The translations under genes were made by a program, and so were the position numbers. From a virus: DNA of 26,336 bases. Below are positions 244-22,077 of the stretch, piece after piece. The notes under the pieces are model-generated. The model did no database searches and was not told where the DNA came from. It saw nothing but the letters and a program-made list of their open reading frames with translations. Position 1 is the stretch's first letter; each line of letters opens with the position of its first letter. The DNA is taken from the IMG/VR virus record IMGVR_UViG_3300032116_001148, positions 1 to 26,336 of that record; one strand, written 5' to 3'.

Positions 244-2421
244 ATGGGCGTGAAGCTTGCGCAGACGAACTTCTCTTCCGGTGAACTCGATCCCCTGATG
301 GATATGCGCCACGACACGGGCGCGTATCAGAACGGGGCTCGTAAGCTGCGCAACATTGCCCTACTCAATCAGGGAGGCGGCACTCGCCGTCCTGGGACCG
401 AGCATCTGAATACCCTGACGGGTCGCTCGCGTCTGATCCCATTCGAGTTCTCGTCTTCCGAGCGATACATCTTCGCGCTGTCCAACACTCAGCTGAAGGT
501 GTTCAGCACGTCGGGCACCCTGCTCCAGACGCTCACGGCTCCGTGGACGACCGCGATGCTGTTCGAGCTAACCTTCACTCAGGCTGCTGACGTGATGGTC
601 ATCTGCTACCCGACGATGAAGACCCAGATCATCCGTCGTACCGCAGCGGACACGTTTACGATTGCCGACTTCGCCTTTGATTCGAGCATCAACTCGAACA
701 AGGTGTATCAGCCCTACTACAAGTACGCCGCCGATACGGTCACGCTCTCTGCAAGCGGGACGACCGGAAGTGTGACTCTGACGACTAGCGCCAGCTACTT
801 CGTCGCCGGGCATGTCGGAATGCGCATTCGGTGGTTCGGCGTTGAGATTGAGATTACTGCCGTTACGAACGGCACCACTGCCACGGGCACCGTTAAAGGT
901 ACGCTTGAAGGCACCTATGATCTTGATCCGTTCAAGACGGAGCATTCCAGTTCGACGATCATCGTCACCCATGTGGCGCACGGTCTTACCACCGGACAAT
1001 CGATCACGATTTCGGGGGCGAACACCACTGGTGGTATCAGCAACAACCAGATCAACGGGACTCGGACGATCACCGTGATCGACGACAATCACTACTCGAT
1101 TGTCGCGGGCGGCAATGCCAGCACGTCGGAAGACGGTGGCGGGACCAACGTGAAGTTCACGGGCAACAATATCCCGACCCGCAACTGGGACGAGCCCGCC
1201 TTCTCCGTGGTCTCTGGCTATCCCGGTGCTGTCAGCTTCCACGAGGCGCGTCTGTGGTTCGGTGGTTCCTACTCGCAGCCTGACGGTCTGTGGGCCTCGA
1301 AGATCAATCAGTTCTTCAACTTCGATGTGGGCGAAGGACTCGACAACGAGTCGATTCAAGTCACGGTCGGCTCCGATGACATCTCGTCGGTGAGGCATCT
1401 CGTTTCGAACCGCCACCTTCAGGTGTTCACGGCCACGTCCGAGTTCTATGTGCCGCGTGTTCCGAACAACACGATTACGCCGAGCAACATTTCGATCTCT
1501 CGCCAGACGCCTTACGGGTGCAGCGCCCTGAGCCCGCAGCCCTTCGACGGCGCGACGGTCTACCTTCAGGCGAGCCAGAAGGTCGTGCGCGAGTTTCTGT
1601 ATACGGATACGGAACAGGCTTACAACTCGCCCGCGCTGTCGATGCTGGCCGAGCACCTGATTCTTACACCGCACGACATGGCCGTATCCTACGGCACTGC
1701 CAAGAGCGGCGAGCAGTATCTGCTGGTCGTGAACAACGATGGCTCTCTGGCCGTCTTCCATTCTGCCCGAGCCGAGAAGCTGGCCGGATGGACGCTGTGG
1801 ACGACGAAGGGTTCCGGCTCCGAGACTGCCAAGTTCGATTCGGTGATGACCATCGGCGAGCGCATCTACGTCTCGGTGCAGCGCAACAGCAGCTATCACC
1901 TCGAACGCTTTGCCGAAGAAGACCTTGACTCGACTCTTGATGGGTCGAAGACGTTCACCGCAAGCCCGGCTACTACGGGTTGGGCTATCGGCTCGATCTA
2001 TGCGAACAAGACGGTGTCAGTCGTTTCCGGCAACTACTATCTTGGCGACTTCACCGCCTCGGCGGGTGGAGAGATCGTGCTGAATAACGCGGTCACGAGC
2101 ATCCGTGTCGGGTATAACTACATCCCCGAGATCGAGACGCTGCCCGTGCATCTTCAGCTTGCCGATGGCGTTTACACCGGAAGGCCGAAGCGCATTGCAC
2201 GAGTGATCCTCGGCCTGAACTCTACTCTGTCGGTCAGCGTTGCGGGCAATCGCCTCATCATCCGTCAGGTGCGAGACGACTTTTCGAACGCCCCGAACCC
2301 CGTTACCGGTAAGCGGGAGTTCTTCTTGCTCGGCTACAATCGTGATGCGACCATTACCGTGACGCAGACGGAGCCTCTGCCGATGCGCGTCCTTGGTCTT
2401 GCGATGGAGGTATCGGCCTAA
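244..2421 (+). CDS. Tail tube protein B-like (T7 gp12-like nozzle protein)
   Basis: This 725-residue protein is the likely nozzle of the short tail. Its N-terminus (Q-T-N-F-S-S-G-E-L-D, then G-G-G-T-R-R-P-G-T at about residues 44-52) is the recurring opening of podoviral gp12-like proteins, where the RRPGT motif follows a G-rich turn. The rest is Ser/Thr/Val-rich beta-sheet sequence. Residues of about 239-300 (T-H-V-A-H-G-L-T-T-G-Q-S-I) look like the small beta module often labelled an E1 FCCH-like domain in phage tail proteins, probably an inserted decoration. The ATG follows the preceding stop by 3 bases, and the TAA shares one base with the next ATG, so translation is probably coupled along the tail operon. 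Confidence 0.85.
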   Translation: MGVKLAQTNFSSGELDPLMDMRHDTGAYQNGARKLRNIALLNQGGGTRRPGTEHLNTLTGRSRLIPFEFSSSERYIFALSNTQLKVFSTSGTLLQTLTAPWTTAMLFELTFTQAADVMVICYPTMKTQIIRRTAADTFTIADFAFDSSINSNKVYQPYYKYAADTVTLSASGTTGSVTLTTSASYFVAGHVGMRIRWFGVEIEITAVTNGTTATGTVKGTLEGTYDLDPFKTEHSSSTIIVTHVAHGLTTGQSITISGANTTGGISNNQINGTRTITVIDDNHYSIVAGGNASTSEDGGGTNVKFTGNNIPTRNWDEPAFSVVSGYPGAVSFHEARLWFGGSYSQPDGLWASKINQFFNFDVGEGLDNESIQVTVGSDDISSVRHLVSNRHLQVFTATSEFYVPRVPNNTITPSNISISRQTPYGCSALSPQPFDGATVYLQASQKVVREFLYTDTEQAYNSPALSMLAEHLILTPHDMAVSYGTAKSGEQYLLVVNNDGSLAVFHSARAEKLAGWTLWTTKGSGSETAKFDSVMTIGERIYVSVQRNSSYHLERFAEEDLDSTLDGSKTFTASPATTGWAIGSIYANKTVSVVSGNYYLGDFTASAGGEIVLNNAVTSIRVGYNYIPEIETLPVHLQLADGVYTGRPKRIARVILGLNSTLSVSVAGNRLIIRQVRDDFSNAPNPVTGKREFFLLGYNRDATITVTQTEPLPMRVLGLAMEVSA

Positions 2422-2933
2422 TGTGTGTCTCCGTTCTTGTTGCCAGCACCCTCATCAGCGCGGCTGGTCAGGCTATCCAAGCATCCCAGGCATCTGCTGC
2501 GGCTGAAGCTGAAGCGGATTACAGGAACTATCAGCTTGGCGTTCAGAACGAGCAGCTCGCCGAAGATCGCAAGCTGACCGAGCTTCAGGCACTCGAAGCC
2601 GAAAGCCAGCGTCGTGATCGTGCCCGCGAAATCCGCGCAGCTAACGAAGCCTTCACGGCTGGATCGGGCGTAGGCGAAAGCCGTTCGTTCCTTCAGGGCG
2701 CTGGCGCTGCGGGCGAACAGGCTCTTCGCAAGGACATCACGAACATCCGCTTGCAAGGTTCGGTTGCTACCGGGCGCATCACCGATCAGATCGGCGTGAA
2801 TCGTGTCGAGGCTCAGTTTGCTCGTGACCGTGCGTCGATGATCGGGCAGCAAGCTCGCACCGGAGCCGTGATCGGTACGCTGACGTCTGCTGCTTCGAAT
2901 GCGTATCGCTATACGCAGTACAAGACCAAGTGA
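2421..2933 (+). CDS. Internal virion protein, T7 gp14-like
   Basis: This 170-residue protein has a hydrophobic, Ala-rich N-terminus (residues 1-30, V-L-V-A-S-T-L-I-S-A-A-G), then a long charged helical stretch rich in Glu, Gln and Arg, and a Gly/Ala segment near the C-terminus. That layout and its place between the gp12-like nozzle and the two large internal proteins match the smallest podoviral ejection protein (T7 gp14), which enters the outer membrane during DNA delivery. The ATG overlaps the previous stop by one base (TAATG). No enzymatic motif is visible. The call is based on synteny plus general composition. Confidence 0.75.
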   Translation: MCVSVLVASTLISAAGQAIQASQASAAAEAEADYRNYQLGVQNEQLAEDRKLTELQALEAESQRRDRAREIRAANEAFTAGSGVGESRSFLQGAGAAGEQALRKDITNIRLQGSVATGRITDQIGVNRVEAQFARDRASMIGQQARTGAVIGTLTSAASNAYRYTQYKTK

Positions 2934-2941
2934 GGTAGGCC

Positions 2942-5896
2942 GTGGCTATTCAACGTGATCGTGAACAGATCGGTGTCCAGCCGAGCGGTCGCCTGATCCG
3001 CGAGTTCCGTACCGAGCTTCCCGAGCCTACGACTGGAGCGCTTGTCTCGCGCTTTGGCAGTGCCGTGGGTGAAGTCGGCGAAGGCATGATGAAGCAGGAG
3101 GCCGACAAGGCCGCAAAGGAAGCGATTGCCGCCGCTCCTGTAAAGGACGTAAACGGCAACTACGTTGCGCCGCCTCCGCCCGAGACGTTTGGTCCTTATG
3201 CCGCGAAGATTTATTCCGAGGCAGTCGACACTCGCTATAAGAACAACGTCTTTCAGGACTTCCAGACTAAGCTGAACGAGATTGCTGCTGCGAATCAGAG
3301 CGATCCTGTTCGCTCATTCGAGCTCATGAATGCTCATGCTCGCGGCGTTCTGAAGGGCATCGATCAGCGGTTTGCGCCTGATCTGGAAGCCAACTTCACT
3401 CGCGAAGTGAACGAGCGTCAGCGCGGCATTCTGAATCTGAATGCGTCTCGCGAGCGTGAGGCTACGGTTCAGGACTTGAAGGTTCAGCTTGTTCGGTACA
3501 ACGAGCAAGCGATGGATGCATGGTCCCGTTCTGCGGGCAATCCTGAGATGGAGGCTGAAGCTCGTCGGCTTCAGACTGAGGCGCTCAACACGCAGCGTCG
3601 ACTCGTCCAGTTAGGCGCTGACACTAACATGAGCGTGCAGCAGCTTGAGGCTACGCAGCGCTCGAACCAGTATGCCGGAACCCTCATCTCTGCTTTCAAC
3701 CGTGCTATCGAGGAAGGCTCTCTGACGCCGGAAGCTCTGGCCGATGCCCACATGATCTCGCAGGGTCTTGGCGGCAAGAAGTCGGTCACTATCGGTGGCA
3801 TGACCTTCTCTGCCGATGACGTGCTTCGTGAGATTTCTGATCCGCGCATTCGCCAGATGCTCGGCTCGCGAATCAACACGATCCGTACCGATCTGTCTCA
3901 GAGCTTTGTTCGCGATACTGCGACGGAAAATGCCCGGCGCATCAACGACTACCACGACCGCAACCCCGGTGCTGCGGGTTTCCCGGCCAACACGACAGCG
4001 GAGCAACAGCGTTACGCCGTAGAGACGTGGGCTCAGACCAACAATGTGAATCCGTTCACGCCTGAAGGCTATCAGGTCATCGTCAGCCGCTATGGCGCGG
4101 TGCCTGATAAGTTCTACAATCAGGTTTTCTCCAACATCACCATGAAGACGCCTGAGCAGCTTGAGCGCCTTCGTCCGCTCTGGAGCGCGATGGGCAGCAC
4201 GATCCTTCGCGACGGCTCGCGTGCCAACACGCAGAGCATGGCGCTGGATGCGAAGGACGATGCCTTCATGTGGTGGTACACCACCCTGCGTGGCAACAAT
4301 GAGGGCATGGACCCTGTTGCTGCTGCGGAGGCCGCTCGTAAGAATGTCGAGCGTGGGATGACGCGCATCTCGGAAGAGAGTGCAAACGATATCCTGATGA
4401 AGCAGTTTCGTCTGCGTCAGGGTAATCAGGCCACGGTCACGAACCTCTACGACAAGTTCAAGAGCACGACCGATATCGATCTGACGACGATGAGCGATGA
4501 CTCTCGTCGTTATATCCTTTCGACGGCTGCCGCTTTTGTCGCGAGCGACATGCCGCTCGATGAGGCGCTTGATCGTGCAGGCCGCCACTTCAAGACGAAC
4601 TTTGAAGCGAACCCCTACACTCTGACTTATGGCGTCAAGGGCAAGGGCGGTTTCACTGAGAGGGCAACAAATCCTCCTGCGCTTCCGTCTGCTGATGGTA
4701 CGTCGAGCTATGACTACCTGAAGCCCCTCGTCGGTACGGCGATCAAGGAGATGGCCGATCCGAATCAGATGGGCTTTAAGCTCGATGGTCTCGAAGTCGG
4801 CAAGAACGTGTGGCTGAAGCCTGTCGGCACCAGCATTGCGAATCCTGCGTATCAGCTTTGGTACTATGAGAAGGGTGGAGTCCAAGTACCCATCAAGACC
4901 CGTGACAACACCATCGTCACGATGTTCATTGGCAACTACATCAAGGCGCAGGACGAATATGCTCGCGCCTCGGTTGTCGAAATGGAAAGGACTCGTCGCG
5001 AGTCTCTCTCACAGCTGAACATTGGAGAGCTTGCCGGCGCACCCCCAAGCGCCATGGGCGATTCCTTTGTGCCTGGTCAAGCAGCCGAGGCCATGGGCAC
5101 TCAGCCTCCGCAGAGGGCTGCTCCTGCCCCTCAGACGCCCGCCTCTTCCATGGAAGGCTTTGTGGCGACGGAGGGTCTCGAGATCAGCGGGCAAGCTCCT
5201 GTTGCCGCTCCTGCTGCTCCCGGTAAGCCTCCGCTCTATATCGTTCCTCGTGCCGAGCATGTCATGCCTCCTCCGATGATTCGGAAGATGTTGCAGCGCA
5301 ACGAGGATACGATTGAACTGCGCTCGATCCCGAAGGGTCCGCAGCGTCGAAGCGAAGCGGCCGGCATGGTTCAGGCGGCTTCGTTCGGTGGTGAGAGTGG
5401 TCCTGCTCCCACGACGATTAATCGTGCAATGCAGTTCCTTGGCGTTAACGAACAGAATGGCAGGGCCACGCTGACGGCCTTCTTCCAGAAGACCATCGGT
5501 GAGGCTGTTGATCCTGTGAATACGCCGTGGTGTGCAACCTTCGCCAACGCCATTCTGCGTGAGACCGGATACCTCGGCACCAACTCGAAGTTTGCTCGCT
5601 CCTTCCTTGCCTATGGCGAAACGCCCGAGACGCCGTCCAATGGCGACATCGTGGTGCTGCGTCGTGGTAGAAGCGAAGTCAGCGGCCATGTCGGATTCTT
5701 CATGGGCTATGAAGAACGCGGTGGCCAGCGGTACGTTCGTGTCCTTGGCGGCAACCAGAGCAATGCTGTAACTGAGCAACTGTTCCCGGCCAGCGAAGTG
5801 CTGGGGATTCGTCGCCCGGTGAAGTTGCAGGAAGCCCGCAATCTGCCGGGGGTCGAGGGTACAACTTTCGCGCAGTTCAATGAGGATGTGGGCTGA
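2942..5896 (+). CDS. Internal virion protein, T7 gp15-like, with C-terminal peptidoglycan hydrolase domain
   Basis: A 984-residue ejection protein with a GTG start just after a GAGG ribosome binding site. Residues 1 to about 700 are mostly helical, as expected for the gp15-like component of the ejection conduit. A Pro/Ala-rich linker follows at about 700-800. The C-terminal 130 residues form a TIGR02594/CHAP-like cysteine hydrolase: W-C864-A-T-F-A-N, G-H916-V-G-F-F and G-G-N938-Q can serve as the Cys-His-Asn triad. Such domains cut the peptide part of peptidoglycan, so this is probably the virion lysin that opens the wall during entry. In T7 the wall-cutting domain sits on gp16 and is a transglycosylase; here it is on the gp15-like protein. 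The stop overlaps the next start (TGATG). Confidence 0.82.
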   Translation: MAIQRDREQIGVQPSGRLIREFRTELPEPTTGALVSRFGSAVGEVGEGMMKQEADKAAKEAIAAAPVKDVNGNYVAPPPPETFGPYAAKIYSEAVDTRYKNNVFQDFQTKLNEIAAANQSDPVRSFELMNAHARGVLKGIDQRFAPDLEANFTREVNERQRGILNLNASREREATVQDLKVQLVRYNEQAMDAWSRSAGNPEMEAEARRLQTEALNTQRRLVQLGADTNMSVQQLEATQRSNQYAGTLISAFNRAIEEGSLTPEALADAHMISQGLGGKKSVTIGGMTFSADDVLREISDPRIRQMLGSRINTIRTDLSQSFVRDTATENARRINDYHDRNPGAAGFPANTTAEQQRYAVETWAQTNNVNPFTPEGYQVIVSRYGAVPDKFYNQVFSNITMKTPEQLERLRPLWSAMGSTILRDGSRANTQSMALDAKDDAFMWWYTTLRGNNEGMDPVAAAEAARKNVERGMTRISEESANDILMKQFRLRQGNQATVTNLYDKFKSTTDIDLTTMSDDSRRYILSTAAAFVASDMPLDEALDRAGRHFKTNFEANPYTLTYGVKGKGGFTERATNPPALPSADGTSSYDYLKPLVGTAIKEMADPNQMGFKLDGLEVGKNVWLKPVGTSIANPAYQLWYYEKGGVQVPIKTRDNTIVTMFIGNYIKAQDEYARASVVEMERTRRESLSQLNIGELAGAPPSAMGDSFVPGQAAEAMGTQPPQRAAPAPQTPASSMEGFVATEGLEISGQAPVAAPAAPGKPPLYIVPRAEHVMPPPMIRKMLQRNEDTIELRSIPKGPQRRSEAAGMVQAASFGGESGPAPTTINRAMQFLGVNEQNGRATLTAFFQKTIGEAVDPVNTPWCATFANAILRETGYLGTNSKFARSFLAYGETPETPSNGDIVVLRRGRSEVSGHVGFFMGYEERGGQRYVRVLGGNQSNAVTEQLFPASEVLGIRRPVKLQEARNLPGVEGTTFAQFNEDVG

Positions 5897-8800
5897 TGCC
5901 GTCATTCGATGAAGTCCTGCTCTCGGAAGCCAATGCGATGCGAGCGGAGGGTCTCGACCCGACCGAGGGTGCGTTCACGCCCCTCATGCCTCGCGTCATG
6001 GACAATCGGCTGCCGAACAGCTTCGTCGATAACATTTATGATAGCATCTCGGTCCAGCCTTTCTGGCTGCTGACCAAAGAGGTCATGGACTCGAACTATC
6101 CGCCCGAGCCTGACTATGATCCTCTCGCTGCCGAGAATATCAAGGGCTACGAGTTCTATGCGTCCTATCTGCGTGAGGCTCGCTCACGCGCTCATGCCGA
6201 TTCGATCAAGCGTCGGATCGATACGATTGGCGAAACCAAGAAGCGGCTTGAGGAAGATTCGGGAATCGCTGAAGAGCTGATTGCCGAGTTCGCGAACCCG
6301 ATCAACTACCTGCCTTTCGGTGCCGTTCGCACGGGCGTAGGCTTTGCTCGCGGTGCCGTCCGTGGTGCTGGTGCCTTTGCGCCTGTGGTGCTCGCGGAAG
6401 AAGGTCTTCGCTCTCAGGTTGACCCGACCGCAACTAGGGAAGAACTGCTGACCAATGTGGCCACTGGCGTGGTTCTTGGTGGTCTGATCGGTGGCGGCAT
6501 TGGAGTCATTGGCGGCAATACCGGACTCGCTCGCGTTGCGAAGGAGTACGATACCTTCCAGCGTGCGATGGATGGTGCGCCTGTTCCGACCCGTGACGTG
6601 CCTGTCGAGCCGGGTGCATTCGTTGCCGAGCCGACGAACGTGCCTACCGGGGTTGCCCCTGCGTTCGGTCTGGAGCGTATAACGAACCGCGTTACGGGCT
6701 ATCGCCGTCTCATCTCGTACAACATTCGCGCACTCGAAGACCTCGCCAACGGCATGGTCGGAGAGTTCGATCTGATGTTCAATCGGAACAAGGTCGGACC
6801 TGACGGTACCGCTCCCCTTCCGACGCAGCGGTCTGCTTGGCTTGAGTCTGGCATGTGGCGTGGCATGGCCGCAGACACGCTCAAAAAGCTCGACGCGATC
6901 TATAACGAATACCTGGGCGGTGGTGCTGCTCCGACGACGATTGCCAACGTCAACATCCCGGTCACGATGCAGCGTGTCGGTCAGGCGTTCGGCATGCGTC
7001 CGTCCGATGGCAAGATGACCTACAACGACTTCATGGATGCGATCTTCCGCGCCCATAAGCAGGATGGCGTGAAGGCCGATGATCCCTTCGTCGGCAGGGC
7101 TGCCTCGGTGGTCCGTGAGTTCTTCGACAAGGCTCGTGATGAGGGCGTGAAGACGGGCTTCCTCTTCAACCAGCGATTCGCTGCTGGGGCGTTTGCCAAG
7201 TACTCTGAGAGGGCTGCTCGCTTTCGGGGTGAAATCGAGAAACTTCAGGCCAAAGACCTTCTAACCGACAAAGAGCGCGTGAAGCTCGGGCTTCTTGTGC
7301 AGTCATTTGCAAACGCGCAGAGCAATGCCAAACGCTATTCGTTGGCTAGAATGTCTGAGCAGCGGCAGACCTTAGGTGCCGCACCTATGCCGCGCACCCG
7401 CGTCGACATGATCCCTGCGAATGATGGGATTATGCCGCGCCGCGCTGAAGAGGCCGGCATTGGTCAACCCCCTGCTGCGAATCAGATTCTTCAACGCTTC
7501 GTAAATACGGACACCCAATTCAATCCGGCGAATGACGGACGAATTGTTATTGACGCTTTTGCCGACAATAGGAGTCTGGAAGAGGCTGCGCTTCTTTACA
7601 AGACTGGCAAGCCTTTTGTTGCTGATTCTTTCCACGGGACCACTTACATCTTTGATCGTTTCGACCCTGAGTTTTTGGGTCAAACCACCTATGCTGCATC
7701 TGCAAAAGAAGCATTTTTTTCTGCTCGTTCCACGAAGACGGCTGAATTCTATTCCAATATTGACAATCCTGATCTTAATACCATTGATCAAGATATAAAG
7801 AAGACGCTTCAGCAAAGCATTGGCAAGTCTCCATTGGCATTTGCTGCACATGCCAGAGACCTTGCTTCTGAGTTCCCCATTTTTTTTAAAAATCAGGACG
7901 CAGAAAGAACGTTTTGGAGTATGACTGCTGACGCTCAAAAATATGAAGACCTTTCTCAGTATATCTCTTTTAGGTACATGAATCCGGAGGAAGGCCCGCT
8001 TCCCGATGCTTTTTCTAAAAAGTATATGTATAACAATATGTTAATCCCTGAGTTTGAAGTTGACGTACTCAATGGCACGTTTGATCCTGAAGGGGATCAG
8101 ATGCTCATTGAGCTGCGGAATACAGTGCTCGATATTCGTCAGTCTGTTAATAGGTTTGACATTAACTCTATTGAGGGCGTGGAAGTTGATGAGATACCTT
8201 TGCCCGAGTCAAACATTCATATGCTTCGAATCCGAATGGACAATCCTCTTGTCCACGACTATCAGGGCGAAAGATATCGTGATATTAGTTATTTAAGCTT
8301 AATTAAAAAAGCTAAGGAAGGGGGGCATGATGGCGTAGTCATGCTCAACACATATGATGGCGGTGGAAAAGACATCATCTATGCTGTCTTTGATCCCGAA
8401 AAAATGCGTGCGCGTTTTGATGCTGAGGCTTATGAAGCTACTCGGCGCACTGCTCGCATTGGTCAAAGCCGCCCTTTGAATATGCCTGATCCTGCTAATG
8501 ATCAGAACGTAGGCGTTACCCAAACCACCGCTGCGCTGCGTGGAGTTGGCGGATTTGAGCGTCCCCGCTTTGGTGGAGCCGCGAACGAAAACATTCCTGG
8601 CTATCGTGGTCCCGCGAACGATCCCTTCTATCTTCCTCGTCAGTATGACTACGAGAAGATTGCCGCTGATGAGTCTGGTCCGAAGGTGCTGCGTTCGATC
8701 CTGACGAAGTACTACACCGAGAATCCGCTCCCCGGCCTTTCGGTAACGGATGAGAATGTCGCCAAGCGTGTAGACAGCACGATGAAGACCATTCTTGGAG

Positions 8801-10386
8801 AAGCGCAGACCGGAGAGCTTCAGGTCGGCAAGGGCAGCTTTGCCCAGTTCCGCATGGAGCGTAGTCTCGACATTCCGAATGAGCTCGTCGCTGACTTCCT
8901 CGAGACCGACGTGAGCAAGCTGCTTCGCTCCTACGCGAATCGCGCAGGGTACGGGATCGAGCTGACCCGCAAGTTCGGTTCGCGGGATATGCAGGACGCG
9001 ATTGACGACACGCTTCTTCAGGCCATCGACGAGCTCGACGGTGACTACGGTCGCCTGAGCAAGACGGTAAAAGAGATACGAGACGAGATCACGACTCTGC
9101 GCGACCTTGCGACCGGGGACGCCTACGCTGCGAATCCCGCCTCTCTCTCTCGTAAGGCCGTACAGGCTCTGACGGGTTGGGCGGCTATTACCCAAATGGG
9201 TGGCTCGGCTATCACTGCGCTGACTGAAGTTGCGAAGCCGATCATGGTGCACGGCATTCAGCGCAACCTCAACTTCGTTCTCGGCCGCCTTGCTGATCCT
9301 GAAATATATAAAAATCTTTCGGAAGAAACCCGTGTGCTCACGGGCGAGGGTCTCGAAGTCACGCTGAACATGCACGCCCATCGCTTCACGGAGCAGGGTG
9401 GACTGACTGCGCCTGGCATTACCAAGATTGGTCGCGCTTTCGACAAAGCGACCCAGCCGCTCATCAGCTTCTCGCAGGGGCCGTACTACATCGCCAACCT
9501 TCTCGGTCCCGTCACCGACATGATGAAGACCTACTCGGGCGCGATGTCGGCTCACTTCATGCTGGAAGACATCATCAAGGTTGCTGCTGGCAAAGCGTCC
9601 AAGAAGACGGTCGAAAAGCTGGCGACGCATGGCATCTCGGTCGATGACGCAAAGCGCATGGCCGACCAGCCCATCGAGAAGCTGACGAAGCTTCGCGTGG
9701 CCAACACGAGTGCGTGGGATGACCCTGATCTTGTTCGTCAGTTTGTTGGAGCGGTTGCGGGCGAGACTCGTCGGACCATCGTAACGGCTGGACCTGCGAA
9801 CAAGCCGAACATCTCGCAGGGCTTTATCGGCAAGGGTGACAGTCTGCGCGAAGTCGCTCTCCTACGACTGCCGTTCCAGTACATGAACTTCGGCTTTGCC
9901 GCGCTGAACAAGAACCTTCTGTCTGCCTTGCAGGGTCGTGAAGCCAATGCCTTTGCGGGCGTGGCTGCAATGGTCGGCATGGGCTACATGGTCTCGCGCC
10001 TGAAGTCTTCCGACGCCGCATGGGAGCGTATGCCTGATGAAGAAAAGATTCTTCGAGCGGTCAACCTCTCGGGCATTCTCGGCATCATCGGCGACGTGCC
10101 GAACATGATCGAGAACGCTTCGAGCGGAGAGTACGGACTGCGCCCCATGCTCGGTCTGCCTCCTGCTTACGGCTACCGTATGTACGACGAGTACAGCAGC
10201 CTCGGCCCGCTGGTCGGTCCCGGCGGCGGCAAGATCGTTGATATGTACAAACTCTTCGTGGACGACTCGACGACTGAACCGGAACAGGCTCGCATCTTGC
10301 GGCGCATGATTCCTCTCAATGACGCCTTCTACTGGAAGTCTCTCTTCACGGAAGCGGAGAGGGGTCTGACGGAGACGCTCTACTAG
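5896..10386 (+). CDS. Giant internal virion protein, T7 gp16-like, carrying an ADP-ribosyltransferase-like insertion
   Basis: At 1496 residues this is close in size to T7 gp16 (about 1300), which spans the inner membrane and helps pull in DNA. Gly-rich hydrophobic stretches at about 145-165 and 185-215 could be membrane-active. The C-terminal third (from N-D-P-F-Y-L-P-R at about 907) looks like the conserved core of these proteins. No lytic transglycosylase motif is evident at the N-terminus; wall cutting appears to be done by the preceding protein. Residues of about 500-880 are a compositionally foreign insert with an ADP-ribosyltransferase-like signature, described separately. The ATG shares a base with the upstream stop. 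The frame is open throughout, so the insert is translated. Confidence 0.8.
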   Translation: MPSFDEVLLSEANAMRAEGLDPTEGAFTPLMPRVMDNRLPNSFVDNIYDSISVQPFWLLTKEVMDSNYPPEPDYDPLAAENIKGYEFYASYLREARSRAHADSIKRRIDTIGETKKRLEEDSGIAEELIAEFANPINYLPFGAVRTGVGFARGAVRGAGAFAPVVLAEEGLRSQVDPTATREELLTNVATGVVLGGLIGGGIGVIGGNTGLARVAKEYDTFQRAMDGAPVPTRDVPVEPGAFVAEPTNVPTGVAPAFGLERITNRVTGYRRLISYNIRALEDLANGMVGEFDLMFNRNKVGPDGTAPLPTQRSAWLESGMWRGMAADTLKKLDAIYNEYLGGGAAPTTIANVNIPVTMQRVGQAFGMRPSDGKMTYNDFMDAIFRAHKQDGVKADDPFVGRAASVVREFFDKARDEGVKTGFLFNQRFAAGAFAKYSERAARFRGEIEKLQAKDLLTDKERVKLGLLVQSFANAQSNAKRYSLARMSEQRQTLGAAPMPRTRVDMIPANDGIMPRRAEEAGIGQPPAANQILQRFVNTDTQFNPANDGRIVIDAFADNRSLEEAALLYKTGKPFVADSFHGTTYIFDRFDPEFLGQTTYAASAKEAFFSARSTKTAEFYSNIDNPDLNTIDQDIKKTLQQSIGKSPLAFAAHARDLASEFPIFFKNQDAERTFWSMTADAQKYEDLSQYISFRYMNPEEGPLPDAFSKKYMYNNMLIPEFEVDVLNGTFDPEGDQMLIELRNTVLDIRQSVNRFDINSIEGVEVDEIPLPESNIHMLRIRMDNPLVHDYQGERYRDISYLSLIKKAKEGGHDGVVMLNTYDGGGKDIIYAVFDPEKMRARFDAEAYEATRRTARIGQSRPLNMPDPANDQNVGVTQTTAALRGVGGFERPRFGGAANENIPGYRGPANDPFYLPRQYDYEKIAADESGPKVLRSILTKYYTENPLPGLSVTDENVAKRVDSTMKTILGEAQTGELQVGKGSFAQFRMERSLDIPNELVADFLETDVSKLLRSYANRAGYGIELTRKFGSRDMQDAIDDTLLQAIDELDGDYGRLSKTVKEIRDEITTLRDLATGDAYAANPASLSRKAVQALTGWAAITQMGGSAITALTEVAKPIMVHGIQRNLNFVLGRLADPEIYKNLSEETRVLTGEGLEVTLNMHAHRFTEQGGLTAPGITKIGRAFDKATQPLISFSQGPYYIANLLGPVTDMMKTYSGAMSAHFMLEDIIKVAAGKASKKTVEKLATHGISVDDAKRMADQPIEKLTKLRVANTSAWDDPDLVRQFVGAVAGETRRTIVTAGPANKPNISQGFIGKGDSLREVALLRLPFQYMNFGFAALNKNLLSALQGREANAFAGVAAMVGMGYMVSRLKSSDAAWERMPDEEKILRAVNLSGILGIIGDVPNMIENASSGEYGLRPMLGLPPAYGYRMYDEYSSLGPLVGPGGGKIVDMYKLFVDDSTTEPEQARILRRMIPLNDAFYWKSLFTEAERGLTETLY
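7360..8560 (+). other. AT-rich insertion encoding an ART-PolyVal-like domain inside the gp16-like gene
   Basis: Codon use changes sharply here: 22 of the 60 bases at 7921-7980 are G/C, against 35 of 60 at 9481-9540 in the same gene. The encoded segment has F-H580-G-T near its start, then Y599-A-A-S-A-K-E-A-F-F-S and A-E-F-Y619-S, and ends with D812-G-V-V-M-L-N818-T-Y-D-G and Y-A-V-F-D-P-E-K-M. This pattern (FHGT, Y-x-A/T-S-x-x-x-A-F-F, DGV...N...VF-P) is that of the ADP-ribosyltransferase domain of phage polyvalent proteins. The family usually has Glu after the Asn; here D821 occupies that place, so activity is uncertain. The domain assignment is from memory of the motif, not from a search. 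Confidence 0.7.
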
Positions 10387-10399
10387 TGCATTGATGGCA

Positions 10400-10420
10400 T
10401 GTCGTGATCCAGCCACGACA
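10400..10420 (+). promoter_or_regulatory. Short hairpin upstream of the tail fibre gene
   Basis: A perfect 7-bp inverted repeat (TGTCGTG / CACGACA) with a 7-base loop lies in the 51-base gap between the giant internal protein and the tail fibre gene. No T-run follows, so it is a poor intrinsic terminator. It ends 6 bases before the GGAGG ribosome binding site of the fibre gene and could tune translation or protect the 5' end of a processed message. Function is inferred from position only. Confidence 0.4.
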
Positions 10421-10437
10421 AGCTGCGGAGGATGGCT

Positions 10438-12582
10438 ATGCCGATCTTGATTAACGACACTAGCGCCCGTGCTCAGTACACGGCTACTGCGTCTCAGACG
10501 GTCTTTACCGTCCCGTTCGAGTTCTTTGCGAACGCGGACCTCAAGGTCTATCGCGGCTCTACCCTTCAAACGTTGACGACTCACTACACGGTTACGGGCG
10601 CTGGCGTCACGGGCGGTGGCTCGATTACCCTTGTAACGGGTGCCAGTGCCGGTGAAATCGTTACGATTGTGCGTGATGTCCCCGTCTCCCGCACGACCGA
10701 CTTTCCGACCTCTGGTCCGTTCAATGTCGATGCACTGAACACTGACCTTGATCGCCTCACTGCGATGGTCCAGCAGCAGGAAACGCTTGATACCAGGTCG
10801 CTGCGTATCGATCAGTTCGACACGCCCAACACGCTGAATGCGCTGCCTTCGAAGACTAGCCGTGCGGGTCGCATTCTTTCGTTCGATGCTAATGGTCAGC
10901 CCAGCACCACGACTACTGCGTTTCCTGAAGCCCTTACCGCCACCAACTACATTCGTGTGAATTCTGGCGGCACGGCTTACGAACTTCGCGCTCCTGCTTC
11001 CGTTCGCTCCGACATCGGGGCTGACGATGCGTCGAACCTGACCAGCGGGACCGTGGCTGACGCTCGGCTGCCCTCTACGATGGCGAGCAAGACACTCACG
11101 AGCGTTACGATCAGCAGCGGCACGATTACGGGCATCACCGATCTGGCGATTGCTGACGGCGGCACGGGCGCTTCGTCTGCCTCGGCAGCCCGTTCCAATC
11201 TCGGCCTCGTGATCGGCACTGACGTTCAGGCTTACGATCCCCAGCTTGCTGACATCGCGGGTTTGACGCCGACCGATAACAACTTCATCGTCGGCAACGG
11301 CACGAACTTTGTCACCGAATCCGGCGCGACTGCTCGCACGTCTCTCGGCCTCGGCACGATTGCCACGCAGGACGCGAGCAACGTTTCGATCACGGGCGGA
11401 TCGATCAGCGGTGTTACGTTCACGTACACCACGCCTCTGACGGTCCCCGGCACGGCGTCTGCAACGGGCGAGATCCGGCTTGCGGAAGACACCGACAACG
11501 GCACGAACTATGTCGGGCTGAAGGCTCCCACGTCGATCAGCGCGGACATCTCTTGGACGCTTCCCGCGGCTGACGGCACCAGCGGTCAGTTCCTGTCCAC
11601 GAACGGCAGCGGTGTGCTTGCGTGGAGTTCCCCGGCTGGTGGCGGCGATGTCACTGGTCCCGCGTCTTCGACCGATAACGCCATCGTCCGCTTCGATCTG
11701 ACGAGCGGCAAGGCGATCCAGAACTCCACGGCTACGCTGTCTGACGGCGGCATCCTTCAGACTACGGAAGTCTCGACCGACACGATCAGCGAGAAGACCG
11801 CTGCGGCTGGCGTTACGATTGATGGCGTCCTTCTTAAGGACAGCGCGGTCACGACCGACACCATCAACGAAAAGACTGCGGCTGCTGGCGTCACCATCGA
11901 CAGCGTGCTGTTGAAGGATGGCGGCGCAACGCTGACGGCTCCGATCATCTTGGGTGCCGGGTCTGCTTCTACTCCGTCGATCACCACGACCGGAGATACC
12001 AACACGGGTATCTTCTTCCCGGCTGCAGATACCATTGCCTTTGCTGAGGGCGGGGCTGAAGTGGTGCGGATCAATAGCGATTCGCAAGTCGTTTACACGG
12101 CTGGCACTGCATCTCTTCCGGCCGTGACGTTCACGGGCGATTTGAACACAGGCATCTATTCTCCCGGCGCTGACCGGATCGGCTTTACCGAAGGTGGCGT
12201 TCAAGTCGGCGAGTTTGATGCGAGCAGCAACTTTCTCTTCAATAGCGGCTATGGCTCCGTTGCAATTGCCTATGGTTGCCGGGCTTGGGTCAACTTCAAT
12301 GGCACCGGGACGGTAGCGATCCGTGCGAGCGGTAACGTGTCGAGCATCACTGACCACGCGACGGGCGACTATAGCGTGAACTTCACCAACGCCATGCCCG
12401 ACGCGAACTATGCCGTGCTTGGTACTTCGGGCCAGAGTGCTGCCGCGAACAACATGAACTGTGTTGGTCGCAACTTGGACAACTCTGTGCAATCCACGAC
12501 GGCGGTTCGGCTCTACAACCTAGTTACGAACACGTCTGGCGCAATCGACAACCCGAACATCTTCGTCGGCATCTTCCGCTGA
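10438..12582 (+). CDS. Tail fibre protein with T7 gp17-like N-terminal attachment domain
   Basis: Residues 1 to about 120 (I-N-D-T-S-A-R-A-Q-Y-T, then F-T-V-P-F-E-F-F, then T-T-D-F-P-T-S-G-P-F-N) match the N-terminal domain of T7 gp17-type fibres, which binds the tail. The middle is a Thr/Ser/Gly-rich repetitive shaft with two tandem 26-residue repeats (see separate entry) and two copies of a G-D-x-N-T-G-I motif. The last 110 residues (W-V-N-F-N-G-T-G, G-N-V-S-S-I-T-D, M-P-D-A-N-Y) form a beta-rich C-terminal domain common in fibre tips and probably bind the receptor. GGAGG at 10427-10431 directly abuts an ATG at 10432 but lies 6 bases before the ATG at 10438, so the latter is chosen (714 residues). 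Confidence 0.88.
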   Translation: MPILINDTSARAQYTATASQTVFTVPFEFFANADLKVYRGSTLQTLTTHYTVTGAGVTGGGSITLVTGASAGEIVTIVRDVPVSRTTDFPTSGPFNVDALNTDLDRLTAMVQQQETLDTRSLRIDQFDTPNTLNALPSKTSRAGRILSFDANGQPSTTTTAFPEALTATNYIRVNSGGTAYELRAPASVRSDIGADDASNLTSGTVADARLPSTMASKTLTSVTISSGTITGITDLAIADGGTGASSASAARSNLGLVIGTDVQAYDPQLADIAGLTPTDNNFIVGNGTNFVTESGATARTSLGLGTIATQDASNVSITGGSISGVTFTYTTPLTVPGTASATGEIRLAEDTDNGTNYVGLKAPTSISADISWTLPAADGTSGQFLSTNGSGVLAWSSPAGGGDVTGPASSTDNAIVRFDLTSGKAIQNSTATLSDGGILQTTEVSTDTISEKTAAAGVTIDGVLLKDSAVTTDTINEKTAAAGVTIDSVLLKDGGATLTAPIILGAGSASTPSITTTGDTNTGIFFPAADTIAFAEGGAEVVRINSDSQVVYTAGTASLPAVTFTGDLNTGIYSPGADRIGFTEGGVQVGEFDASSNFLFNSGYGSVAIAYGCRAWVNFNGTGTVAIRASGNVSSITDHATGDYSVNFTNAMPDANYAVLGTSGQSAAANNMNCVGRNLDNSVQSTTAVRLYNLVTNTSGAIDNPNIFVGIFR
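11776..11931 (+). repeat. Two tandem 78-bp repeats in the tail fibre shaft
   Basis: Two consecutive 26-codon units encode T-D-T-I-(S/N)-E-K-T-A-A-A-G-V-T-I-D-(G/S)-V-L-L-K-D. The proteins differ at only a few positions, while the DNA differs at many third positions, which points to an old duplication held at protein level. Units of this kind recur in many phage fibres and probably form a repeated beta structure in the trimeric shaft. Confidence 0.75.
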
Positions 12583-14139: not shown

Positions 14140-15084
14140 ATGCCTCTTCCTCCTCTGTCTGACGAGATGCTGCGCGAGCGTATTCGCCAATACAATCAGA
14201 TGGGGAGCAACGCTGCGGCGCTGGCCCGATCTCTTGGCTTGAGCGTATCGACCGTCAAGGATCAGATGGCGACGGCTCGCCGGAAATTCCCCGAACTGTT
14301 CGACACCAACATCCACCACGTTCAGAAGGCTCCGGTCGGCTGGACGATCCCGCAGATGGTCTCTCACGAGATTGCCGACTGCTGCGTTCTGGTCGGTGGC
14401 GATCTGCACATCTGGCCGGGCGAAGTGCCGCTGATGTGGAAAGCCTTCTGCTCGGTAGCCCACCAGCTTCGACCGTCAGCCATCGTGCTGAACGGGGACA
14501 TGCTGGACGGCGCGCGTGTCAGCCGCCACGGTGCGCTGCTCGGGTCTCATGCGCCCAAGATCGATGAAGAGATTGATGCTCTGCACGATGCCCTGCGGAT
14601 GCTGCCGCACGCAGAGCTTCAACTGTGGCCTGTCGGCAACCATGACCAGCGGGTCAATTCCTATCTGGCGAACGCGGCGTCGGAGTTGGACGTGTATGTC
14701 GGCAGGCTTGAGGACCGCTTCCCGCAATGGGAGTTCTGCTATGGCGCGACCCTCTGCGACGTGGAAGTCCGTCATCGCTTTAGGGGTGGCATTCACGCTG
14801 GCTGGAACAACGCCTTGCATGCCGGCATATCCGTCATCACAGGGCACACCCACCAGCTTCAGATCACCGCTGTCCGCAATCGGAATGGATCTCACTGGGG
14901 GGTGGAGGCAGGAATGCTTGGCGACCCTCGCTCGCGGGCATTCGAGTATCACGAAGGGGCACCATCGCGCGCACACGAAGGTTTTGTTGTGCTTACTTTT
15001 GATGAGGACGGCAAGCTGATGCCGCCCGAGTTCTGCGAGATGGTGCGCGGTCGCCCCGTCTTTCGTGGCAAGCCCGTCTACTAA
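14140..15084 (+). CDS. Calcineurin-like metallophosphoesterase with N-terminal helix-turn-helix
   Basis: 314 residues. Residues 10-52 form a resolvase/Hin-like helix-turn-helix (A-A-A-L-A-R-S-L-G-L-S-V-S-T-V). The remainder carries the metal-binding blocks of the calcineurin-like superfamily: G-D88-L-H90, N118-G-D120, G-N167-H168-D and G-H236-T-H238. The enzyme should hydrolyse phosphodiester or phosphomonoester bonds with two metal ions; its substrate is unknown, and a DNA-directed role fits the fused helix-turn-helix. It is the last plus-strand gene of the late block and its stop overlaps the end of a minus-strand microgene by four bases. Confidence 0.88.
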   Translation: MPLPPLSDEMLRERIRQYNQMGSNAAALARSLGLSVSTVKDQMATARRKFPELFDTNIHHVQKAPVGWTIPQMVSHEIADCCVLVGGDLHIWPGEVPLMWKAFCSVAHQLRPSAIVLNGDMLDGARVSRHGALLGSHAPKIDEEIDALHDALRMLPHAELQLWPVGNHDQRVNSYLANAASELDVYVGRLEDRFPQWEFCYGATLCDVEVRHRFRGGIHAGWNNALHAGISVITGHTHQLQITAVRNRNGSHWGVEAGMLGDPRSRAFEYHEGAPSRAHEGFVVLTFDEDGKLMPPEFCEMVRGRPVFRGKPVY

Positions 15085-16897: not shown

Positions 16898-17378
16898 TTG
16901 CCTTCTTCCTCTTCTCGACCTGCCGAATTCCGTACAGGATGGTGGTGTGATCGCGGTTCAGAATCTCTCCGATCCTCGGCAGAGACCAATCCGTGTGCTT
17001 GTAGATGCGCCAGTAAAGTTCTTGCCGAATCCGAACGAGCTCGGGCTGCCGCCGCGGAGAGCGAATCTCGGCGAGCGAATAGCCCGTCTCCTCAGTGATC
17101 TCGGCGATCATCTGGGTGACGATCTTGCTGTATTGCATCTTGCCCTTGGTGATCGTGACGTAGTCATCGAACATTTTTTCAAGCATGCGCCACTGGTCGC
17201 GACGCGCCTGTTCCTTCATTCGCTCCTGCTGCAACCGTTGTTCGACAAGTTGCTGAGCCCAAGTCAAATGGTTCTTTTCATCATCGGCCCGTCGCTTTTG
17301 CTCTGCTGCCGCGTTGAAACGGGCAAGGCGGGCTTTGCGCTCCTCGTGAAGTTTCTGCTTCAGGCTCATGGTGCTCAT
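16767..17378 (-). CDS. Protein with DnaA domain IV-like DNA-binding domain
   Basis: 203 residues. Residues 6-75 are a highly charged helix rich in Lys, Glu, Arg and Gln, likely a coiled coil. Residues 98-157 match the C-terminal duplex-binding domain of DnaA: S-L-A-E-I-R-S-P-R-R, L-V-R-I-R-Q-E-L-Y-W, S-L-P-R-I-G-E-I-L and the hallmark D143-H-T-T. There is no AAA+ ATPase domain, so it is not an initiator by itself; it may bind DnaA-box-like sites to recruit or block host DnaA or act as a regulator. The ATG overlaps the ArdC-like stop (ATGA). The last 45 residues overlap the next gene and look unconserved. Confidence 0.8.
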   Translation of the reverse strand: MSTMSLKQKLHEERKARLARFNAAAEQKRRADDEKNHLTWAQQLVEQRLQQERMKEQARRDQWRMLEKMFDDYVTITKGKMQYSKIVTQMIAEITEETGYSLAEIRSPRRQPELVRIRQELYWRIYKHTDWSLPRIGEILNRDHTTILYGIRQVEKRKKASEQKSDSGVSEKDRRGTGMHVRRSAEDTRGNGRDVLPVFGSPC

Positions 17379-18238
17379 GCTACTTCTCTTAGTTCTTCTT
17401 CCTCATTGAAGTTGAGAATGAAGTCCGCAGCCTTGGAGGCTTGGGACGCCGCTCGAACGAGGGCTCGCTTGTCTTTCTTTGCCGCCTCGAGCCACGACTT
17501 CAGATACCTGGCGTGGTCGTCACGCACGTAATTCGTAATACCGAAGTCAGCAGACAGGAAGGCAGCGCCCATCTCGGCGATCATCTCCTCGACCGCATAG
17601 GCATCCGAGCCAAACGAGGTCGAAAGATTACGATCCAACCGTTTCTTCGCTCCAGTCCAATGGACAAGTTCGTGGAACAGCACGGAGTAATAGTTCTCCA
17701 TGGTCACGAACTGCTCGGGCTTGGGCATCCGAATCGTGTCAATAGAGGGGACGTAGCATGCACGGTCGCCACCGATGTCGATAGTGGCATTGAGGCGCTT
17801 GATCGCGTTGTCGATGTCATCACGACGGGCGATTGCGCTTGCGCCTTGTGTGGGCTCCGGCTCCATCGCCTTGGCACCTTCAACTTGCTCGGCATTGAAG
17901 ACATAAGAGACACGGCTGACGATGCTCTTGGTTGGATCGCCGCTCTCACCCTCACGCTCATACTGTTTGAAGAAGATGATCGGCGTGCCCTTTGCACCCT
18001 TGCGCACTTTGCAGTCGGCGGCTTGCCACTGATTGAAGGTTGCCCAGCGGTTCGAGCTGTAGCCCGCACGATGCGCGGCGGCCCAGCACATGAAGACGTT
18101 CACGCCCGTGTAGCGCTTCTTCGTGATGGCATTGCTGGGACGGTCAAGGCCGAGCTCTCGCCACGGCGGAGCCCAGTTGCCCGCTCCATCGACCATCTCC
18201 AAGAGGCGGTCGGTGATCTCCTGATATGCGTCCTTCAT
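17375..18238 (-). CDS. ArdC-like antirestriction protein (ssDNA-binding domain plus zincin metallopeptidase)
   Basis: 287 residues. The N-terminal part (residues 1 to about 120; W-A-P-P-W-R, N-A-I-T-K-K-R-Y-T-G-V-N, then K-V-R-K-G-A-K-G-T-P-I-I-F) is the ArdC N-terminal ssDNA-binding domain. The C-terminal part has H189-E190-L-V-H193-W-T-G, a HExxH zincin site, and Y-A-V-E-E-M-I-A-E, the usual third-ligand helix. ArdC proteins of plasmids and phages protect incoming DNA from type I and II restriction. An in-frame TTG at 18250 is possible, but the ATG at 18238 directly follows GGAGAGAG and is preferred. It follows ssb, separated by a hairpin. Confidence 0.88.
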   Translation of the reverse strand: MKDAYQEITDRLLEMVDGAGNWAPPWRELGLDRPSNAITKKRYTGVNVFMCWAAAHRAGYSSNRWATFNQWQAADCKVRKGAKGTPIIFFKQYEREGESGDPTKSIVSRVSYVFNAEQVEGAKAMEPEPTQGASAIARRDDIDNAIKRLNATIDIGGDRACYVPSIDTIRMPKPEQFVTMENYYSVLFHELVHWTGAKKRLDRNLSTSFGSDAYAVEEMIAEMGAAFLSADFGITNYVRDDHARYLKSWLEAAKKDKRALVRAASQASKAADFILNFNEEEELREVA

Positions 18239-18256
18239 CTCTCTCTCCAAAGTGAA

Positions 18257-18286
18257 GTGCCGGGGCTCATCACCCCGGCACGTTTT
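18257..18286. terminator. Strong hairpin between ssb and the ArdC-like gene
   Basis: A perfect 9-bp GC-rich stem (GTGCCGGGG / CCCCGGCAC) with a 7-base loop lies between the ssb stop and the ArdC-like start. On the plus strand it is followed by GTTTT, the form of an intrinsic terminator; on the minus strand, the coding direction, it is followed by TTCACTTTGG, a weaker tail. It may partly stop early transcripts so that ArdC is made at lower level than SSB, and may also stop antisense transcripts. Confidence 0.6.
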
Positions 18287-18669
18287 CAGAACGGCATGTC
18301 GTCATCGAGGACAGCTGCTGTCGATGGCGAACCACCAGAACCGCCATCCTCTGCTCGCGTCAGCAACTGAAGCTCACCCGAGAAGCGGCCGATGCTGACC
18401 TCGACAGCCAGCTTCTCGACACCGTCCTTCGTGTAGGTCCGCTTCTCGAGCGCGCCTTCGACGTAGACCTTCGTGCCCTTGTCCGCGAAGGAGTCGAGAA
18501 CCTCGACCTTCTTCTCGTCCCAGCACACACAGTCTACCCACATCGTCGCCTTCTCTTTGTTGACGTAGCGGTTCACGGCAACCGAGAAGCGGGCGAACCG
18601 CTTCCCATTGGTCTCCTTGATCTCAGGCTTGCGCCCGAGATTGCCGATGAGCGTAACCTTCGCCACCAT
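18286..18669 (-). CDS. ssb: Single-stranded DNA-binding protein
   Basis: 127 residues with the OB-fold pattern of bacterial and phage SSB: V-T-L-I-G-N-L-G-R-K-P-E-I at 5-17, F-S-V-A-V-N-R, W-V-D-C-V-C-W-D, and K-G-T-K-V-Y-V-E-G near 65-73. A Gly/Ser-rich linker leads to the acidic tip D-D-D-M-P-F, the site by which SSBs recruit partner enzymes. It coats single strands during replication and recombination and would act with the ERF and YqaJ proteins encoded upstream. The ATG shares a base with the upstream stop (TGATG). Confidence 0.95.
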   Translation of the reverse strand: MVAKVTLIGNLGRKPEIKETNGKRFARFSVAVNRYVNKEKATMWVDCVCWDEKKVEVLDSFADKGTKVYVEGALEKRTYTKDGVEKLAVEVSIGRFSGELQLLTRAEDGGSGGSPSTAAVLDDDMPF

Positions 18670-18893
18670 CAGGCAAGCCTCCAGACGCGAATGCTCTTGC
18701 GGTCATTCGACATGCGCGTCACGAACTTCATCTTCTTGTCTTTGTGGATTCGCGTAATCATTCCGGCGATACCCGGGCGCTTCTCAATAGGAGCAACGAA
18801 CGAGTCACCGACCTCCATATGCTGGAACGGATATTTTGAATACGGCTGAATGCCCTCCAAGGGGACGTTCTTCTCGATCTGGTAGGTCATCAT
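18669..18893 (-). CDS. Small conserved phage protein of unknown function (beta-rich, DNA-metabolism operon)
   Basis: 74 residues with M-T-Y-Q-I-E-K-N-V-P-L-E-G, then K-Y-P-F-Q-H-M-E-V-G-D-S-F and a basic C-terminal half that ends R-K-S-I-R-V-W-R-L-A. The K-Y-P-F-x-x-M-E-V-G-D-S-F block recurs in short phage proteins encoded beside replication or recombination genes. Charge and position between erf-like and ssb genes fit a nucleic-acid-binding accessory, but no function is known to me. Tandem ATGATG at the start overlaps the ERF stop. Confidence 0.75.
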   Translation of the reverse strand: MMTYQIEKNVPLEGIQPYSKYPFQHMEVGDSFVAPIEKRPGIAGMITRIHKDKKMKFVTRMSNDRKSIRVWRLA

Positions 18894-19459: not shown

Positions 19460-19476
19460 AGCCTCTCTCCTGTACC

Positions 19477-19659
19477 TCAGTCTTCTTCGTCGTCGTGGTA
19501 CTCATCGCAAGCTTCTGCGTGTAGCCGCAGGGCTTCGATCCCCTCGGCTGCCAGCGTCAGGCATCGCTTGTCAGTCGATAGCGCGAGCACCGCCTCGCAG
19601 AGTTCGCGCCACCGATCTTCGAGCTCGAGGGCGCTCATGATCTTGCTGGGATCAGACAT
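19477..19659 (-). CDS. Small acidic hypothetical protein
   Basis: 60 residues, helical and acidic, ending D-E-Y-H-D-D-E-E-D. The ATG overlaps the stop of the winged-helix gene by 8 bases, and the stop lies 17 bases before the ERF gene start. The helix (L-E-D-R-W-R-E-L-C-E-A-V-L) and acidic tail could mimic DNA or bind a recombination protein, but this is only suggested by composition. No family recognised. Confidence 0.65.
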   Translation of the reverse strand: MSDPSKIMSALELEDRWRELCEAVLALSTDKRCLTLAAEGIEALRLHAEACDEYHDDEED

Positions 19660-20831: not shown

Positions 20832-20871
20832 GTCGCTCTCTCCTTCGACATTGATGATCTTATTGGGTTAG

Positions 20872-22068: not shown

Positions 22069-22077
22069 GCTCTCCTC

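What the first reader, a model, noticed from the sequence alone, without database searches (positions are those of the whole stretch)
7360..8560. ADP-ribosyltransferase-like domain inserted in the giant ejected virion protein
A roughly 1.2-kb AT-rich island keeps the frame open inside the gp16-like gene and encodes FHGT, AFF, and DGV...N...VF-P signatures of the ART domain found in phage polyvalent proteins. gp16-like proteins are injected into the host, so the enzyme would arrive before any phage gene is expressed, analogous to the injected Alt ADP-ribosyltransferase of T4. D821 stands where the family normally has Glu, so it may be weakly active or degenerate.
Basis: partly seen in the sequence, partly recalled or inferred. 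Interest (0 to 1): 0.85.

Follow-up and report, generated by a model that had tools for sequence, protein, structure and literature searches.

The report
Injected phage protein carries ADP-ribosyltransferase domain
A short-tailed phage has an extra enzyme domain of the ADP-ribosyltransferase kind spliced into the large internal protein that, in phage T7, is ejected into the host with the DNA, so it probably delivers a ready-made host-modifying enzyme at the first moment of infection.

Summary
Window 5896-10386 encodes a 1496-aa T7 gp16-type ejection protein, and residues ~566-850 (7591-8445) are a real ART-PolyVal domain (PF18760, Tox-ART-HYD2 clade). A profile built without the window's own clade finds it at E=1.8e-16 (best of 1000 shuffles 0.44). 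An AlphaFold model (pLDDT 82) matches only ART-superfamily structures among its top 50 rows (Z up to 9.2). The domain sits in a 42% GC island; flanks are 58%. All gp16-like relatives examined outside the window's clade lack it; in Hodr-type phages the site holds only a coiled coil and a short Pro linker. One correction: D821 is not a substituted catalytic Glu. The family's published active site is H-Y-D, and the window keeps H580, F608 and D812 (D in 91/91), so the degeneration argument fails. The island has about 6-fold fewer synonymous changes than its flanks in the most diverged pairs, which suggests recent exchange among these phages; its helical insert changes fast while the segment with H580 and F608 is constrained. 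ARTs in injected polyvalent proteins are known (Iyer 2017); insertion into a T7 gp16-type core was not found in the papers or sequences searched. Enzyme activity, injection and target are inferred.

The parts
5896..10386 (+). gp16-like ejection (internal virion) protein, 1496 aa, carrying the inserted ART domain
   Evidence: phrog_342 E=3.2e-56; T7 gp16 is itself a full-length phrog_342 member; profile-profile match to T7/SP6 gp16, 96.6% probability, E=6e-10, residues 997-1377 to T7 787-1165
7378..8625 (+). whole insertion relative to empty-site relatives (residues ~495-910): linker with PAND motifs, ART domain, linker with PAND motifs
   Evidence: In Hodr and L131-L134 the same coiled coil runs into 'YFNRIWRRDKI' through a short Pro linker; boundaries by eye, +/- ~10 residues
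7480..8442 (+). AT-rich island, 42.5% GC
   Evidence: Two-changepoint likelihood scan; the ART segment is 42% GC in L003 and L004 too
7591..8445 (+). ART-PolyVal (HYD2-type) domain, residues ~566-850
   Evidence: PF18760 24-25 bits, below the 31.2 cut-off, best stretch in the N-terminal half; clade-independent profile E=1.8e-16; fold match to ART structures
7630..7641 (+). motif 1 FHGT, H580 in strand 1
   Evidence: H in 91/91 homologues, though 75 of them were fetched with a pattern containing YHG; strand 1 of the model
7711..7719 (+). motif 2 AFF; F608 stands at the family's Tyr position in strand 2
   Evidence: Column 608: Y 53, F 26, W 7 of 91
7771..8202 (+). helical insert inside the ART fold (residues ~626-769), fast-evolving; possible target-binding part
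   Evidence: Helices between residues 72 and 198 of the model; mostly gapped in other members; 19 non-synonymous to 9 synonymous codon changes between window and L003
8329..8331 (+). D812, the Asp at the start of strand 5, taken as the D of H-Y-D
   Evidence: D in 91/91 homologues, not selected by the search pattern; precedes strand 813-819 of the model
8356..8358 (+).
   Evidence: Invariant Asp in the ten homologues of A4; column is a gap in 72/91 of the wider set
8626..10335 (+). gp16 C-terminal core, resuming at FYLPRQYDYEKI
   Evidence: Alignments A1 and A8; resembles T7 'YVPHVYDR' (T7 residues 665-672) by eye
2942..5896 (+). gp15-position neighbour with a C-terminal CHAP domain, T7/SP6 gene order
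   Evidence: CHAP E=7e-7; order tail protein, 170 aa, 984 aa, gp16, tail fibre as in T7 and SP6

Best explanation
The gene is a T7 gp16-type ejection protein into which an ART-PolyVal domain was inserted, in frame, between the coiled-coil middle and the C-terminal core. Mechanism, step by step. (1) Packaged as part of the internal virion proteins: inferred from homology to T7 gp16 and gene order. (2) Ejected with the gp14- and gp15-like proteins before or with the DNA: inferred. (3) The C-terminal part, and with it the ART, ends up on the cytoplasmic side, where NAD+ is: inferred from the T7 model in which residues 411-1118 form a cytoplasmic ring (PMC8954989) and from the insertion mapping just before T7 residue ~665. 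(4) The ART transfers ADP-ribose from NAD+ to a host macromolecule, most likely a protein, before phage genes are expressed: inferred from the kept H580-F608-D812 site; the target is unknown. The fast-changing helical insert may choose the target.
For: gp16 identity: and gene order. ART identity by sequence. By fold: AlphaFold model, pLDDT 82, 83 sequences; 27 of Foldseek's top 28 are ART-superfamily chains (tankyrase, MbcT, ParT; best E 0.07), and all 50 VIA rows are (NatT, MbcT, tankyrases, ParT, PARP1/2, Xre-RES; best Z 9.2, rmsd 3.4, 128 residues). Insertion: absent from Hodr, ctHz2215, PG9A-2, TL-2011b, the Klebsiella and Microcystis phages, T7, SP6 and L131-L140. Maintenance: open frame and active-site residues kept in window, L003 and L004; dN/dS of the segment with H580 and F608 (570-625) is 0.05-0.11. 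L013, a different phage, has a related ART in the ORF immediately upstream of a gp16-C homologue.
Against: No activity, virion proteomics or injection data exist for this phage. Motif 2 has Phe rather than Tyr, and the position of the classical PARP Glu holds I828. Foldseek E-values are not significant singly, and the VIA tool warns that Z near 8 is common. The whole-ART dN/dS is 0.3-0.43 and the insert's is up to 0.93, so much of the domain is weakly constrained. The cytoplasmic placement rests on T7, whose gp16 is only remotely alike.
Confidence: 0.68

Rival explanations
1. Non-catalytic passenger: the fold is kept but the enzyme is dead (a pseudo-ART), serving as spacer, binding module or nothing.
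For: Phe for Tyr in motif 2 and Ile at the classical Glu position; whole-domain dN/dS 0.3-0.43, insert up to 0.93.
Against: H and D kept in every clade member; F at that position in 26 of 91 homologues, so it is ordinary in the family; the segment with H580 and F608 is constrained at dN/dS 0.05-0.11.
Confidence: 0.16
2. NAD+-consuming enzyme (glycohydrolase or phosphorylase) rather than a transferase, used to lower host NAD+ or starve NAD+-dependent defences.
For: Two of the best fold matches are NatT and MbcT, toxins of the ART fold that, to my knowledge, degrade NAD+ (their activity is from own knowledge).
Against: Tankyrases and the transferase ParT score the same within 1 Z; the sequence family is ART-PolyVal, predicted by its describers to modify host proteins (PMC5512222).
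Confidence: 0.1
3. The ART acts on the phage's own ejectosome or DNA (in cis), for example to regulate pore closing or protect entering DNA.
For: Covalent tethering to the ejection protein would place it at the DNA entry point (inference).
Against: No direct evidence; the same domain family occurs in many injected or polyvalent proteins without a gp16-type core.
Confidence: 0.05
4. The island is an assembly artefact or a stray insertion in one contig.
For: Sharp composition change.
Against: The island is 91-92% identical in L003 and L004 and identical in L002 and L005, all separate records, with an open frame in all.
Confidence: 0.01

Closest known systems
ART-PolyVal (PF18760), Tox-ART-HYD2 clade of polyvalent proteins (Iyer et al. 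2017, PMC5512222)
   Same: Fold, motifs (H, aromatic, D), phage setting, predicted co-injection; its relatives L013, L021 and L022 pass the Pfam cut-off
   Different: Sits inside a T7 gp16-type core rather than with LPD or N4 RNA polymerase domains; has a ~140-residue helical insert; Phe in motif 2; itself below the Pfam cut-off
T7 gp16 / phrog_342 internal virion protein with endolysin domain
   Same: C-terminal core homologous, gene order the same
   Different: T7 gp16 has an N-terminal transglycosylase and no ART; here the lytic domain is a CHAP on the gp15-position neighbour
T4 Alt, injected ADP-ribosyltransferase
   Same: Packaged in the head and injected before gene expression; analogous strategy (PMC5512222)
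   Different: R-S-E clade, a different ART branch; separate protein, not part of a DNA-ejection channel
L013 phage (IMGVR_UViG_3300021090_000069)
   Same: ART 42% identical in the ORF directly upstream of a gp16-C homologue
   Different: ART and gp16-C are in two ORFs; the N-terminal part belongs to other PHROGs

Membership tests
ART-PolyVal / Tox-ART-HYD2 | Family profile match (PF18760 gathering score 31.2) | tested here: not met
   20.1-25.3 bits, E 0.0012 to 2.9e-5, mainly N-terminal half; relatives L013, L021, L022 do pass. So the claim is homology to the family, not formal Pfam membership.
ART-PolyVal / Tox-ART-HYD2 | Homology to accepted members | tested here: met
   Profile of 80 members without the window's clade: E=1.8e-16; without L013, L021 and L022 as well: 1.8e-9
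ART-PolyVal / Tox-ART-HYD2 | His in strand 1 | tested here: met
   H580, strand 1 of the model
ART-PolyVal / Tox-ART-HYD2 | Tyr in strand 2 | tested here: not met
   F608; Phe in 26/91 homologues, so tolerated in the family
ART-PolyVal / Tox-ART-HYD2 | Asp in strand 5 | tested here: met
   D812, 91/91; assignment of the published D to this column is inferred from the strand position
ART-PolyVal / Tox-ART-HYD2 | ART fold | tested here: met
   Model pLDDT 82; all 50 VIA rows are ART-superfamily, Z 8.0-9.2; Foldseek E not significant singly
ART-PolyVal / Tox-ART-HYD2 | ADP-ribosyltransferase activity | not testable with these tools
   Needs a biochemical assay
T7 gp16-type ejection protein | Homology to T7 gp16 | tested here: met
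   phrog_342 E=3.2e-56; hhalign 96.6% to T7/SP6
T7 gp16-type ejection protein | Position after gp14/gp15-like genes and before the tail fibre | tested here: met
   the gp14-like assignment of the 170-aa ORF is weak (Pfam E=0.55)
T7 gp16-type ejection protein | N-terminal transglycosylase | tested here: not met
   No lytic domain found in this protein; SP6 gp16 also matches phrog_342 only from profile position 206, and P22-type proteins lack it (PMC8954989), so it does not define the whole family
T7 gp16-type ejection protein | Present in virions and ejected into the host | not testable with these tools
   Needs virion proteomics and infection experiments
T4 Alt-type ART | R-S-E active site | tested here: not met
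   H580-F608-D812 instead; R-S-E definition from PMC5512222
Polyvalent protein | Two or more effector-type domains in one chain | tested here: inconclusive
   Pfam finds only the ART; a single enzyme domain on a structural core, but undescribed domains cannot be excluded

The most novel reading that the evidence does not exclude
A mobile ART cassette turns the T7-type ejectosome itself into a membrane-tethered ADP-ribosyltransferase: the cytoplasmic ring that receives the DNA carries several copies of the enzyme and modifies host machinery (transcription or defence) at the DNA entry site, with target choice set by a fast-evolving helical insert that is exchanged between phages.
Probability: 0.3. 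Interest if true: 0.75.

Novelty: new variant of a known kind. Interest (0 to 1): 0.52.

Why it matters
Injected ARTs of polyvalent proteins are mostly predicted from gene context. Here the enzyme is part of a T7 gp16-type protein, whose ejection has been studied in a laboratory model, so delivery of a virion enzyme before gene expression becomes directly testable. It also shows that the gp16 core accepts a ~410-residue insertion at a defined site, and that the inserted piece seems to move between phages independently of its flanks.

Tried and rejected
First AlphaFold job with 7 sequences: pLDDT 61, no useful fold match; replaced by the 83-sequence job. D821 as substituted Glu: rejected on column counts. 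Glu at the PARP-like position as a family rule: column 828 is Glu in only 31/91, window I828, so no conclusion. Bacterial genome scans with the ART alignments found no relative, both with narrow patterns. The ART-bearing 2039-aa protein of Caulobacter phage Jess A as gp16-like: not supported (hhalign 0.6%); likewise L022 and L023. Sequence search of solved structures: only a weak match to cholix toxin (E=0.014) over motifs 1-2; not pursued, none fetched. gp16 alignment against PDB sequences: no match. Paper searches for an ART in an internal virion protein or gp16: none found in the held library, which lacks most subscription journals.

Full report
What is in the window. The window is a 26.3-kb virus record. 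The + strand from 244 to 12582 reads tail protein (phrog_376), a 170-aa ORF in the gp14 position, a 984-aa gp15-position protein with a C-terminal CHAP domain, the 1496-aa protein of the finding, and a tail fibre. This is the gene order of T7 and SP6. The 1496-aa protein matches phrog_342 at E=3.2e-56; T7 gp16 itself matches phrog_342 end to end. Profile-profile comparison aligns residues 997-1377 with T7 787-1165 at 96.6% probability. It is a gp16-type ejection protein.

The island. A changepoint scan puts the AT-rich stretch at 7480-8442, 42.5% GC against 58.6%, and third-position GC 0.41 against 0.69 over a slightly longer stretch. The frame is open throughout. The same segment at 42% GC is present in L003 and L004, and is identical in L002 and L005.

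It is an ART. Pfam gives PF18760 at 20-25 bits, below its 31.2 cut-off and mainly over the N-terminal half, probably because a helical insert splits the domain. Searches brought in relatives at roughly 30-40% identity: L013, L021, L022, L023, of which L013, L021 and L022 pass the Pfam cut-off. A wider pattern gave at least 594 relatives in viral contigs. A profile of 80 of these, without the window, L011 and L012, finds the window at E=1.8e-16; the best of 1000 shuffled copies scores 0.44. Leaving out L013, L021 and L022 as well still gives 1.8e-9.

Fold. An AlphaFold model from 83 sequences has mean pLDDT 82. Foldseek's best matches are tankyrase, MbcT and ParT, none significant singly (best E 0.07). 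Structural realignment lists 50 entries, all of the ART superfamily, best Z 9.2 at rmsd 3.4 over 128 residues. The tool warns that Z near 8 is common; the uniform family of the rows, together with the sequence evidence, is what persuades me.

The active site. The describers of polyvalent ARTs report His in strand 1, Tyr in strand 2 and Asp in strand 5 (PMC5512222). In 91 aligned homologues, H580 is invariant (partly by choice of search pattern), position 608 is Tyr 53, Phe 26, Trp 7, and D812 is invariant without having been selected. In the model H580 lies in strand 1, F608 in strand 2 and D812 immediately before strand 5. Thus the site is H-F-D. D821 is an invariant Asp in the ten homologues of A4 and lies in a loop that most members lack (gap in 72/91).

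It is an insertion. In Hodr and in L131-L134 the middle coiled coil runs through a short proline linker into 'YFNRIWRRDKI'; in the window the coiled coil is followed by about 410 residues before 'FYLPRQYDYEKI'. No other gp16-like protein examined has an ART. Among the ART loci fetched, gp16 profiles hit only the window clade, with the caveat that most of those loci were cut 1.5 kb from the match. Both linkers around the ART carry PAND motifs (residues 507, 544, 866, 906). The insertion point corresponds, by eye, to just before T7 'YVPHVYDR' at residue ~665, inside the part (411-1118) modelled as a cytoplasmic ring (PMC8954989).

Its history differs from its flanks. Between window and L003, 16 of 290 ART codons have synonymous changes against 242 of 766 flank codons (Fisher p=5e-22), while non-synonymous changes are about equal (26/290 against 84/766, p=0.37). 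L003-L004 shows the same contrast (13/290 against 230/766) and window-L004 a weaker one (22/290 against 129/766). The simplest reading is that the island was exchanged among these phages after their cores diverged. Within it, the segment with H580 and F608 has dN/dS 0.05-0.11, and the helical insert 0.38-0.93; the segment with D812 has too few synonymous changes for a stable ratio. Three sequences are too few to claim positive selection, and overlapping coding or another synonymous constraint is not excluded.

A second case. In L013 the 42%-identical ART is in the ORF immediately upstream of a gp16-C homologue (hhalign 98.2%). ART and ejection protein have thus come together in another lineage, in a different arrangement.

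Mechanism and verdict. Shown here: a gp16-type protein, an inserted ART homologous to the HYD2-type polyvalent ARTs, kept active-site residues, and a separate recent history. Inferred: packaging, ejection, cytoplasmic exposure, catalysis and a host target. ARTs in injected phage proteins are an established idea (PMC5512222, PMC9503650); insertion into a T7 gp16-type core was not found in the held literature. I file it as a new variant of a known kind.

Noticed in passing
window 7576-8445 versus 6793-7380 and 8626-10335: The ART island has about 6-fold fewer synonymous codon changes between window and L003 than the flanking gp16 core, with equal protein change, suggesting recent exchange between phages.
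   Followed up: partly
window 7414, 7525, 8491, 8611: Four PAND motifs (CCNGCNAAYGA) lie in the two linkers flanking the ART; could be linker repeats or old recombination joints.
   Followed up: partly
window 17375-18250 (-): Anti-restriction protein, phrog_7245 E=1e-76, a second likely counter-defence gene in the same phage.
   Followed up: no
window 18286-22590 (-): Recombination and replication block: SSB, Erf-like annealing protein, RecE-like exonuclease, replication initiation protein, Holliday junction resolvase.
   Followed up: no
window 14140-15081 (+): Metallo-phosphoesterase (phrog_221 E=9.5e-19) next to holin and endolysin genes.
   Followed up: no
L013 4750-7338 and 7961-10552: ART-bearing ORF directly upstream of a separate gp16-C homologue (phrog_684), an alternative arrangement of the same two parts.
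   Followed up: partly
L033 (PQ492659.1) 4045-12426: Limnohabitans phage DC33, a 39-kb genome with a ~3100-aa ART-bearing protein, is labelled Inoviridae in its record, which looks like a misclassification.
   Followed up: no
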